60,208 nucleotides of DNA from Bacillota bacterium (GTDB taxonomy: Bacteria; Bacillota; Sulfobacillia; Sulfobacillales; Sulfobacillaceae): the NCBI GenBank assembly GCA_021784595.1, contig JAJYHT010000064.1, positions 1 through 60,208 on the forward strand, in the 5' to 3' direction. Positions 3,836 to 17,949 of the stretch are shown here, one piece after another. Numbering within the stretch: position 1 is the first letter of the stretch; every line of letters starts with the position of its first letter. The notes below the pieces were generated by a model. It had not been told where the DNA came from. It did no database searches and saw nothing but the letters and a program-made list of their open reading frames with translations. The translations under genes were made by a program, and so were the position numbers.

Positions 3836-4213
3836 ATGTATGACTTTGAGGCAGAACTCTTCCGGGCCTTAGGCGATCCGACTAGGCTCCAAATATTAGG
3901 ATTGCTAAGGATGCGCCAAGCGTGTGTGTGTGAACTGGTGGACCTAGTCCCGGTGAGTCAACCGGCAGTATCTCAACACTTGCGAAAGTTGAAGCAAGTA
4001 GGCTTAGTTCGTGAGCAACGGGAAAAACAATGGACGTTTTACATGCTGCGTGACGACTTGTCGCCAGCAGTCGCGGAAATTATCCGGGACTTGCCCCATT
4101 TGCCAGACGCCGAGGCATGGCTCTTAACCCATCGCGTGGATACCACGTGTGCAGTTGTCCGGCGGACAGTGGGCGCTGAGCCGTTGGCGGTTTCGGCTCT
4201 AGTTGAATCTTAA
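3836..4213 (+). CDS. arsR: ArsR family arsenic-responsive repressor (second copy)
   Basis: About 125-residue winged-helix repressor leading the arsenic efflux operon. CVCEL sits immediately before the recognition helix (VSQPAVSQHLRKL), the classical As(III) sensor position, and a third Cys is in the C-terminal tail (DTTCAVV). Start ATG 3836 follows GAGGTGA at 3824-3830. The upstream promoter has a dyad over the -10, fitting autoregulation. It shares little sequence with the first arsR beyond the HTH, so they probably recognise different operators. Confidence 0.9.
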   Translation: MYDFEAELFRALGDPTRLQILGLLRMRQACVCELVDLVPVSQPAVSQHLRKLKQVGLVREQREKQWTFYMLRDDLSPAVAEIIRDLPHLPDAEAWLLTHRVDTTCAVVRRTVGAEPLAVSALVES

Positions 4214-15066: not shown

Positions 15067-15805
15067 CCCACCTTACTCGCTTTACGCGCAATGCACCGCT
15101 CTGGCCGAAAAAAGGGGGGTGGACCCCGTTGTCCGACACTTTTGGCGAAGATTTTAAGAGACCCTTGGCGCCTATTGCGACCGACGTGCTGAGGTCGTTG
15201 GGATCGGAGAGGGTACCCCATACACGGAAGCGGGCGTGGAGTAATCCAGGCTTTGATGATGACGCTCATGGGAAACTCGCCAACACGGCCAGGCCCCGAG
15301 GCTCCCCTTTAACTACCTTCGCGGCCTAAGAGAAACTCGCTAAGAACAGTCAAGCCGCGAGGCCGCGTTCTACCTACCCCCCGGAATTTTACACGTGGAG
15401 TCTGAGATGTCATGGGCTACAGGCCATGGCATAGAGCCATCGCTTCTCTCACCAATGCGGCGTTTCCCGACACTAACTCACCGTTGGGAGTCACGCAGGT
15501 ATCTCCATATCTCCTGGGGGCAAAAATTCCTAACGCCCGTGGCGTGGGGGACCCACCCCAAGGAGAATGCGTGTCCTCCATGATAATGTGCTGCGAGGAG
15601 TTTACACAAAACATCGTACAGTCTCGCCCATTCCTCACACGCCAATAAAACCGTGTTCCATTGTTCAAGAGACCCGCGGTAAAATGTCAAGCACTAATTT
15701 TCTCGCGAGTGGGCGCAAAAAAGGCATAACTCAGTGAACCGGTTTTGGGAACCAGTTAATGGCAGGGAGGAAATGGCAATGGCAATGGCCTATCGTGCGA
15801 CGGTG
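15067..15805. other. Mobile-element debris with a 60-bp-spaced direct repeat
   Basis: No intact gene recognised. Two diverged copies of a ~46-bp sequence beginning GAAACTCGC and ending CTACC occur at 15272-15317 and 15332-15378. An unassigned minus-strand open frame spans 15478-15690 (about 70 codons, no motif known to me). Likely a stack of decayed insertions. Confidence 0.4.
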
Positions 15806-17050
15806 TTACGCTCCGAATCTCCTTCCATCATACAGTTGACCTCGGGTCAGCAGCCCGAAGATCACGCCGGTCAGCTTGCGTGCCGTCAACACCAACGCCC
15901 GCTTATGCGGGTGATGGGTAGCCCCACTGTACTTGCGGATGTAAAACGCTTCGAAAGCCGGGTCGCGCACACGAACCCGGTCGGCGGCTTCGATCAGGTA
16001 ATACCGCAAATAGGTATTGCCCGACCGCGTCAGCGGCCGATCGTCGGCGTCAAACGTCCCCGATTGATGGGCACGCCAAGTCAACCCCGCATATTTGGCC
16101 AGCGCTTCGTCGGATGGGAACCGGGCGATGGGACCGATTTCGGCCACGATCCCGGCCCCGTACACGGGTCCGATGCCGGCTATCGAGGTGACGGTTTGCG
16201 GGATGGCCGCCAGATCGCGGGTCATGGCCCGGTCGATCTGCCGGATTTGACTTTCCAAGGTGCGAATCGTGTCCAGGTGGATGACCAGACTGAATTGGCG
16301 CGCTTCGGTTTCCTTGGGCCGCAGTCGGAAGGCTTTTTGGGCCAATCGCTGCAGGGTTTGGGCGATATCGTCCGGCGCTTTGAGCGCGGCGCCGCCGATG
16401 TCGGCGATTTCCTTGGCCACTGTGGCCAAGGGGGTCGTCGCCAAACGATCGGGGGTATATTGTGTCAAGACATGCTGCGACGCCCGGCCAAAGACGTCCG
16501 AAAAAAATGGTTGGCGGTCATCTTTGGCTGCGGCTCGGTAGCCTGCCCACAGGCAAAACAGCTCGTTCAGGGCGCGATTTTTCTCGCGGGCCACGGTTTG
16601 CGCCAGTTGGAACCGGTGCCGCGTGACGACTCGCAAGGCGGTATAGCGGGGATCGGGCGCGGGGGCCGGCCGCAGCCGGCCAAAGCGGATGGCATCCGCG
16701 ATCAAAAACGCGTCACTGGGGTCCGTTTTGGCCCGATCGACATAGGTTTTGCGAAAGCTCTGGACGATGCTCGGATTCAGCAAAAACCATTGCGGCTGCC
16801 ACGGTTGCAGCACAACGGCTTGCCCCAGCGCCTCAAACAACGGCCAATGGTAGACCGACGTCGATTCCAATCCGACCGCCAGGCGGTCGCAGTCGGCCAT
16901 CTGGGTCACGAGCCAGTCGATCAACTGCTCGATGCCTGTGCGATCGTTCGACACGCGGTAACGGGACCGCACGGTCCCGTCCGCTGTCATGGTGCAGACC
17001 ACGTGTTCGGCTTGGCTGACATCAATTCCTACAAACAATGTCGACAACAT
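15806..17050 (-). CDS. IS110-family transposase (DEDD recombinase)
   Basis: About 414 residues, full length for the family. N-terminal RuvC-like DEDD domain begins LFVGIDVSQAEHVVC with the first Asp, later ESTSVYHWPL and DRAKTDPSDAFLIADAIR carrying further acidic residues. The C-terminal transposase-20 domain has SIAGIGPVYGAGIVAEIG, followed by AKYAGLTW and SGNTYLRYYLIEAA with the catalytic Ser region. Start ATG 17050 has GAAAGGAGG just upstream on the minus strand. The frame is intact, so the element may be active. It is oriented against neighbouring genes. Confidence 0.93.
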   Translation of the reverse strand: MLSTLFVGIDVSQAEHVVCTMTADGTVRSRYRVSNDRTGIEQLIDWLVTQMADCDRLAVGLESTSVYHWPLFEALGQAVVLQPWQPQWFLLNPSIVQSFRKTYVDRAKTDPSDAFLIADAIRFGRLRPAPAPDPRYTALRVVTRHRFQLAQTVAREKNRALNELFCLWAGYRAAAKDDRQPFFSDVFGRASQHVLTQYTPDRLATTPLATVAKEIADIGGAALKAPDDIAQTLQRLAQKAFRLRPKETEARQFSLVIHLDTIRTLESQIRQIDRAMTRDLAAIPQTVTSIAGIGPVYGAGIVAEIGPIARFPSDEALAKYAGLTWRAHQSGTFDADDRPLTRSGNTYLRYYLIEAADRVRVRDPAFEAFYIRKYSGATHHPHKRALVLTARKLTGVIFGLLTRGQLYDGRRFGA

Positions 17051-17290
17051 GGGATGAACCTCCTTTCTCGGCCAATGGCAAAACACGGTACGATCTGGAA
17101 AGGGAACCGGTCGACGCCCGCTGATTGGCCATGCTACCTCGTCATCAGCCGTCACGTCCTCTCGAGGTGTGCGACGGCACCGGTGCCAACGGTGCTCTCG
17201 GGAGACGGCGGCAACCCGCGTGTTAGCTTCCAATCAGGGGTCGGCCCAGCAGTCTTTAAGAGCCTTCTAGCGCCGTGAGGCGCCCTTTGA
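17051..17290 (-). ncRNA. Candidate bridge RNA region of the IS110 element
   Basis: Non-coding DNA upstream of the transposase start, where IS110-group elements encode the bridge RNA that pairs with donor and target DNA. Visible structure: GGCCAAT (17070-17076) pairs with ATTGGCC (17124-17130) enclosing a ~47-nt loop, and a perfect 12-bp palindrome GGCACCGGTGCC at 17176-17187. The two hairpin domains would suit the two guide loops. Guide sequences cannot be assigned without the element's ends. Confidence 0.4.
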
Positions 17291-17317
17291 GGCAGGGGGG
17301 AACTAGCTTGACCGTCC

Positions 17318-17468
17318 AGATCAGATCTAGGATCGTCGACCGGGCCTTGCAATGCAAGGCACATATTTCCAGATTGGGCTCGGTGGTGATTCCGGCCCTG
17401 GCCAGGGCCGGAATCACCACCCCGCAGGACCCTCTTCCTTGAAGGAAGTAGGTCCAAGCCCAATATCT
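17318..17468. repeat. Array of perfect palindromes, including a 40-bp one
   Basis: In order: AGATC-A-GATCT (17318-17328); CCTTGCA-A-TGCAAGG (17345-17359); a loopless 40-bp perfect palindrome (17382-17421; arm GGTGGTGATTCCGGCCCTGG); CTTCCTT-G-AAGGAAG (17434-17448), extended by GGACC/GGTCC. ATTGGGCT (17373-17380) and AGCCCAAT (17457-17464) enclose the last two, giving a possible three-way junction. No coding frame uses it. Confidence 0.9.
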
Positions 17469-17949
17469 TTATACGAGGGGGGGTCAATGGGTAATAGACC
17501 CGTGATCCAGCAAGCATGACCTTTGAGAATTCCTCCAAAACTTCATCCGGCCAGGCATGCGCTGCTGGTCCTTCTTTTCACAAGAATCGCTGGGCGCGAA
17601 CCTAGTGGTCGCTGAGTTTTTTGACGGACTACTTTTGGATGGTGAATAATGAGAAGATTGGGCTAGCGAGACGACTGACCTGGCAGCCACGCCGGTGCCA
17701 CCCGCATGGCCATAAGCCTGGGTCGCAATATTTTGCAAACCGTTAAGTATGGAGTCTCCTCGTAGAAGACGTTCGCATAATGAAGTGGTGCTCCCGAATC
17801 GCCATGGACCAATTAGTCCAGGAAATGATCATGTGCTCCTGTTTGCCGGCTGCGAAGACTTGACGGGTTTTCGCGGCCGTATTACGGTTAGGAAGGTGGC
17901 AAGCGCCCAGTGATCCAACGGAGCGTCACTACATACGTGAGGTGGACTT
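17469..17949. other. Spacer before the YerC-like gene
   Basis: About 480 bases with no recognised gene. GGGTC/GACCC forms a small hairpin near 17486-17506. A short frame contains AEFFDGLLLDGE (about 17608-17646), possibly from a broken gene, but too little remains to name it. Confidence 0.35.

What the first reader, a model, noticed from the sequence alone, without database searches (positions are those of the whole stretch)
17318..17468. Palindrome array with a loopless 40-bp perfect palindrome
Four perfect dyads lie within 130 bp; the largest has 20-base arms and no spacer, rare because such DNA is unstable in most bacteria. An outer pairing (17373-17380 with 17457-17464) encloses two hairpins, giving a three-way junction. 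It is just outside the IS110 gene. It may be a recombination end, a single-strand origin, or a structured RNA.
Basis: seen in the sequence. Interest (0 to 1): 0.6.

Follow-up and report, generated by a model that had tools for sequence, protein, structure and literature searches.

The report
Bridge-RNA end of an IS110 transposon
The palindrome cluster is the outer tip of an intact jumping gene (IS110 family) and is predicted to be the folded head of the guide RNA that steers this element into ribosome-binding sites in front of genes; it is a new twist on a known RNA-guided system, not a new kind of system.

Summary
A perfect, spacerless 20+20 bp palindrome sits in a three-way junction, is far beyond chance, and is not an assembly error: diverged copies occur in about 15 related genomes, two of them on one 3.2-Mb contig. 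It is not "just outside" the IS110. It is the outermost ~105 bp of the left end (LE) of a complete 1,808-bp IS110-group element (15670-17477). Transposase and LE are conserved together. A 17-bp-spaced sigma70 promoter forms across the predicted circle junction, and the ~355-nt RNA that follows folds as a bridge RNA: the three-way junction (5' domain), a target-binding loop and a donor-binding loop. The left target guide covaries with each copy's own insertion site (p ~ 1.5e-5). Boundaries are fixed to the base by two copies inserted in CRISPR spacers and by orthologous empty sites. The guides spell anti-Shine-Dalgarno sequence (TTCCTCCT-like), and the insertion leaves the AGGAGG with the downstream gene. 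Targeting of translation starts is already reported for IS900, so this is a new variant of a known kind. Most unusual is hairpin P3: its two arms diverge between copies but stay perfectly matched, with a self-complementary TGGCCA tip. Bridge-RNA dimerisation by P3 is possible but untested.

The parts
15670..17477 (-). Complete IS110-group element (1,808 bp counting both CT cores; LE at the high coordinate)
   Evidence: Homology blocks end at these points in all full copies. Copies in CRISPR spacers and orthologous empty sites fix the boundaries.
15809..17050 (-). IS110 transposase/recombinase, 414 aa, no internal stop
   Evidence: Pfam DEDD_Tnp_IS110 4e-35 and Transposase_20 3e-20; IS621 (8wt6) and ISCro4 (9t56) chains match; full length with no stop.
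17051..17477 (-). Left non-coding end (LE), 427 nt, encoding the predicted bridge RNA
   Evidence: Conserved and structured in all full copies; window RNA folds with z = -6.95.
17468..17473 (-). -10 box TATAAA of the circle-junction promoter
   Evidence: Invariant in the LE alignment; 17 nt from the -35 box across the predicted junction.
15685..15690 (-). -35 box TTGACA in the right end
   Evidence: Conserved TTGAC(A/T) in right ends.
17476..17477 (-). CT core dinucleotide, LE side
15670..15671 (-). CT core dinucleotide, RE side
17373..17464 (-). Three-way junction = 5' domain of the bridge RNA; outer helix P2 17373-17380/17457-17464
   Evidence: 17 copies: 89.4% of cells paired, 20 of 33 pairs changed on both sides, 0 of 500 shuffles reach this.
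17382..17421 (.). P3: the 20+20-bp perfect palindrome with TGGCCA centre
   Evidence: 17-22-bp perfect arms of different sequence in related copies; lost in G031 and G017.
17427..17455 (-). P4 hairpin GGACC..CTTCCTT/AAGGAAG..GGTCC
17344..17360 (-). P5 hairpin between the junction and the bridge-RNA core
17334..17343 (-). 5' strand of the 10-bp stem that closes the bridge-RNA core
   Evidence: (I4)
17107..17116 (-). 3' strand of the closing stem
   Evidence: (I4)
17294..17303 (-). Left target guide (LTG) GTTCCCCCCT
   Evidence: Covaries with the insertion-site flank, p ~ 1.5e-5; best of all LE columns.
17254..17261 (-). Probable right target guide (RTG)
   Evidence: Opposite the LTG in the fold. 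A 6-nt match to the target in G013, weak in other copies: inference.
17213..17220 (-). Probable left donor guide (LDG) CGCGGGTT
   Evidence: Matches the RE end CGCGGGT: inference.
17137..17142 (-). Probable right donor guide (RDG) ACGAGG
   Evidence: Reverse complement of the LE end CCTCGT: inference.
17478..17487 (.). LE-side flank = left target (read as TTGACCCCCC on the - strand)

Best explanation
The palindrome array is the LE tip of an IS110-group insertion sequence and encodes the 5' domain of its bridge RNA. Proposed working: (1) the element excises as a circle and joins RE to LE, so the -35 (RE) and -10 (LE) boxes form a sigma70 promoter; (2) transcription starts at about 17460 on the - strand, right at outer helix P2, and makes a ~355-nt RNA of three-way junction, P5 hairpin, target-binding loop and donor-binding loop; (3) the transposase binds this RNA, the donor loop pairs with the RE-LE junction, and the target loop pairs with an anti-Shine-Dalgarno site (Y-rich, CCTC-CT) just upstream of a gene; (4) recombination at CT inserts the element with LE facing the gene, so the gene keeps its AGGAGG. 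In step 3 the 5' domain with long hairpin P3 most likely acts like the 5' stem-loop of IS621, as a peripheral helix that strengthens RNA-protein binding. Shown by sequence: element boundaries, conserved LE structure, guide-target covariation, site preference, promoter spacing. Inferred: excision, transcription, complex formation and the role of P3.
For: Homology runs unbroken from the transposase to the end of the three-way junction in 6-8 copies and stops there. RE and LE ends carry the CT core, TTGACA and TATAAA. The consensus fold gives all IS110 bridge-RNA elements; the transposase strand folds better as a consensus than the opposite strand (-107.5 vs -94.4; A-C mismatches 13 vs 33). LTG-target covariation p ~ 1.5e-5, top of all LE columns; the two copies in G023 differ at one guide base, and their targets differ at the matching base. 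Removing the element restores CRISPR spacers of 35 and 36 nt among neighbours of 34-39 nt and aligns with orthologous empty sites. Nine insertion sites lie 10-16 nt upstream of starts of Pfam-recognised genes. Published IS110 features match: bridge RNA in LE, circle-junction promoter, CT core, first loop target and second loop donor (PMC11208160).
Against: No expression data. RTG-target matches are weak outside G013. G031 and G017 lack P3 although the G031 guide matches its target exactly, so P3 is dispensable or was lost after insertion. The 5' domain is much larger than the single stem-loop of IS621. Some lone LE tips (C76, G033) persist without the rest of the element, so a second role at host genes cannot be excluded.
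Confidence: 0.9

Rival explanations
1. P3 acts as DNA: it extrudes as a cruciform or hairpin that marks the LE for excision or keeps itself perfect by template switching; its RNA form is incidental.
For: P3 changes almost only on both arms at once (56 two-sided vs 12 other variant cells) whereas the rest of the bridge RNA shows 30 vs 68; GU steps are nearly absent; spacerless perfect palindromes are the form expected from self-templated correction.
Against: G031 and G017 have lost P3, and the G031 guide still matches its target. The related G022 family has a short junction and no long palindrome yet has at least three different insertion sites. IS110 recombines double-stranded DNA with a RuvC-like enzyme (PMC11208158). 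Cells are not independent events.
Confidence: 0.2
2. The structure is a host-gene leader or riboswitch that happens to be dispersed, with the IS110 as a neighbour.
For: Solo copies lie directly upstream of start codons (C76 before an enoyl-CoA hydratase gene); all read SD-ATG after the structure.
Against: Downstream genes are unrelated. Two copies are in CRISPR spacers and one interrupts a methyltransferase-like reading frame. Homology includes the transposase. The guide explains the SD context.
Confidence: 0.05
3. The palindromes are the insertion target (REP-like repeats), as for IS621.
For: IS621 and other IS110 or IS1111 elements do target palindromic repeats (PMC11208160, PMC11187229).
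Against: The junction is inside the element in every full copy; empty sites and restored CRISPR spacers contain no palindrome.
Confidence: 0.01
4. Assembly artefact or chance palindrome.
For: The window's own assembly has 101 contigs, so its copy could in principle be misjoined.
Against: Seen in 15 of 34 family genomes, with two copies on a 3.2-Mb contig; compensatory changes in 20 pairs.
Confidence: 0.01

Closest known systems
IS621 / ISCro4 (IS110 group) and their bridge RNA (PMC11208160, PMC11208158)
   Same: DEDD plus Tnp recombinase, long LE with the RNA, RE-LE junction sigma70 promoter, CT core, target loop first and donor loop second, short RTG
   Different: LE of 427 nt against a 177-nt bridge RNA; 5' domain is a three-way junction with a long self-complementary hairpin plus P5 instead of one stem-loop; core enclosed by a 10-bp stem; target is anti-SD rather than REP
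IS900 of Mycobacterium avium subsp. paratuberculosis (Doran 1997, cited in PMC8141618)
   Same: IS110-family element reported to target translation-initiation signals; has a long ORF antisense to the transposase (hed), as five of the six full main-family copies compared here also do
   Different: By recollection, IS900 inserts between the RBS and the start codon; here the SD stays with the downstream gene. Its bridge RNA was not compared here
ISEc21 and IS1111-type seekRNA elements (PMC11187229)
   Same: RNA from the non-coding region chooses the target
   Different: IS1111 RNA lies downstream of the transposase gene; seekRNAs are reported as 70-100 nt

Membership tests
IS110 family, IS110 group | DEDD RuvC-like and Transposase_20 domains | tested here: met
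IS110 family, IS110 group | Long non-coding LE upstream of the transposase, shorter RE | tested here: met
   LE 427 nt vs RE 139 nt
IS110 family, IS110 group | Dinucleotide core, no target duplication beyond it | tested here: met
   CT core; precise empty sites
IS110 family, IS110 group | Circle-junction sigma70 promoter | tested here: met
   TTGACA-17 nt-TATAAA across RE-CT-LE by sequence; activity not tested
Bridge RNA | Target-binding loop that matches the insertion site | tested here: met
   LTG covariation; RTG weak
Bridge RNA | Donor-binding loop that matches the element's own ends | tested here: inconclusive
   LDG CGCGGGTT and RDG ACGAGG match by eye; donor ends vary too little for a covariation test
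Bridge RNA | Transcribed and bound by the transposase | not testable with these tools
   needs RNA-seq and binding assays
IS1111 group | RNA in the RE, subterminal inverted repeats | tested here: not met
   RNA is in the LE; subterminal repeats were not searched for
Rfam families | Match at gathering score | tested here: not met
   only a tRNA in the window; weak sub-threshold hits elsewhere

The most novel reading that the evidence does not exclude
P3 is a dimerisation hairpin. Its tip CUGGCCAG is self-complementary, so two bridge RNAs could pair by kissing loops or by arm exchange. The IS621 structure indicates that the target and donor loops of one synaptic complex come from two different RNA molecules, so a built-in RNA dimer would pre-pair them. 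That would be a new device in RNA-guided recombination.
Probability: 0.15. Interest if true: 0.8.

Novelty: new variant of a known kind. Interest (0 to 1): 0.5.

Why it matters
It adds a bridge-RNA architecture absent from Rfam and not found in the papers searched: a three-way-junction 5' domain and natural guides that spell the anti-Shine-Dalgarno motif, a target present at many gene starts, with the site left usable. That would link the old IS900 observation (insertion at translation-start signals) to a guide-RNA mechanism and give natural guide-target pairs for studying specificity. The maintained self-complementary hairpin raises a testable question about how two bridge RNAs come together.

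Tried and rejected
First idea: a riboswitch-like leader RNA, because solo copies precede start codons; rejected when blastn showed that the conserved unit includes the transposase. REP-type target and assembly artefact rejected. RTG-target matching was tried by eye and is convincing only in G013. Rfam gave nothing. Literature searches for IS110 with Shine-Dalgarno or ribosome-binding-site targeting found no explicit bridge-RNA case; the IS900 precedent was found through PMC8141618. No structure prediction was run; the transposase already matches solved IS621 and ISCro4 chains.

Full report
Observation. The palindrome at 17382-17421 is perfect and spacerless, with 20-bp arms against a maximum of 9 in twenty shuffled windows. 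The outer pairing 17373-17380/17457-17464 encloses it and an imperfect hairpin at 17427-17455. Both strands can draw the junction, so the next question was whether it is used as RNA, and of which strand.

Copies. A search of the window's own genome found diverged copies on two other contigs with the same plan. A covariance model from three sequences found the structure in 15 of 34 genomes of the family, and 17 loci were aligned. Of 33 pairs, 20 have changes on both sides; 0 of 500 shuffles reach the observed pairing percentage or covariation score, and sliding the partners destroys the signal. This alignment is fitted to the model's structure, which flatters the counts, but the arm sequences of P3 differ so much between copies that the covariation is plain by eye. 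Rfam has no such family. Named relatives are Bacillota MAGs including Sulfobacillus sp..

What it belongs to. Pairwise blastn of oriented loci showed that the conserved unit in full copies runs from the transposase through a ~430-nt non-coding stretch and ends at the edge of the junction. Both ends of the element are sharp: LE = CT|CGTATAAAG, RE = TTGACATTTTACCGCGGGT|CT. In the window the element is 15670-17477. Two copies sit inside CRISPR spacers; removing the element with one CT leaves spacers of 35 and 36 nt in arrays whose other spacers are 34-39 nt. The joined flanks of the G031 copy align with uninterrupted orthologous sites in sister genomes. The boundaries are therefore established, and the junction is inside the element.

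How it works. Joining RE to LE gives TTGACA-17 nt-TATAAA, and the predicted start falls at outer helix P2. The window RNA folds with z = -6.95; the nine-copy consensus shows the three-way junction, hairpin P5, a 10-bp stem enclosing a small hairpin, a target loop and a donor loop. The consensus is better on the transposase strand (-107.5 vs -94.4 kcal/mol) with fewer A-C mismatches. The bases at 17294-17303 (- strand) behave as the left target guide: across nine copies they match their own flank far better than other copies' flanks (p ~ 1.5e-5), and no other column of the LE does as well. Two copies in one genome differ at one guide base (TTCCTCCT vs TTTCTCCT), and their targets differ at the matching base. 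The donor guides match the element's ends by eye. The right target guide is weakly supported.

Where it inserts. The guides are anti-Shine-Dalgarno variants. Nine insertion sites lie 10-16 nt upstream of starts of genes with Pfam matches (Kinase-PPPase, GH4, response regulator, PIG-L, KduI, NAD synthase, glycerol-3-phosphate dehydrogenase, enoyl-CoA hydratase, DoxA), and three more are before ORFs of at least 100 aa. The exceptions (two CRISPR spacers; one methyltransferase-like reading frame) contain the same sequence motif, so the motif and not the gene context is read. The core CT stays with the LE, so the gene keeps AGGAGG. A related family (63-64% identical transposase, up to 11 copies in genome G022) and a 48%-identical one in another taxonomic family (G060) also insert at SD-like sites.

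The palindrome itself. P3 is 17-22 bp and perfect in most copies, with TGGCCA at the centre in nearly all. Variant cells are two-sided 56 times against 12 others; in the rest of the bridge RNA the ratio is 30 to 68. These are cells, not independent events, but the contrast is large. P3 is missing in two copies and short in the G022 family, so it is peripheral. The closest tested analogue is the 5' stem-loop of IS621, which is flexible, helps RNA binding and only slightly affects recombination when removed (PMC11208158). The same paper indicates that target and donor loops come from two RNA molecules, which makes dimerisation through P3 an attractive but untested idea. A DNA-level reason (template-switch correction or cruciform) remains possible.

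Membership and novelty. All sequence-testable features of the IS110 group are met; expression and binding could not be tested. Insertion at translation-start signals is already reported for IS900 (Doran 1997 in the reference list of PMC8141618). What is new is the explicit guide-target evidence, the 5' domain architecture and the maintained palindromic hairpin. The papers searched are only those held as open full text, so an earlier description elsewhere cannot be excluded.

Noticed in passing
window 15734-17278 (+): A 514-aa ORF runs antisense across the whole transposase, like the hed ORF of IS900. A stop-free antisense frame of 526-585 codons exists in five of six full main-family copies compared and 537 in the G022 family, but not in G013. 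The transposase has no TTA, CTA or TCA codon (P 8e-7 under host usage, 0.003 under its own A-ending share).
   Followed up: partly
L042 and L040 (G019:C2 and G023:C1): Two copies of the element lie inside CRISPR spacers that carry an SD-ATG-like motif, so the IS entered two different CRISPR arrays.
   Followed up: yes
L006 about 4070 (G000:C28) and four G022 copies: A different element, apparently another IS110 whose protein begins MAKHSVEQSD, abuts the LE at exactly CT|CGTATAAAG, as if it targets the LE tip of these elements.
   Followed up: partly
L007 about 3955-4050 (G000:C76), L051 (G033:C6), L054 (G001:C109): Lone LE tips without the transposase persist near genes (before an enoyl-CoA hydratase gene in C76); possible relics or co-opted leaders.
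   Followed up: partly
G023:C1 copies (L064, L076): Both transposase copies in G023 carry the same in-frame TAG, while the antisense frame stays open in the copy tested.
   Followed up: partly
G000:C59:21725-21998, C101:12506-12632, C100:52147-52278: Other partial matches to the IS110 coding region (95-99% identical), all at contig ends, suggest further copies broken by the assembly.
   Followed up: no
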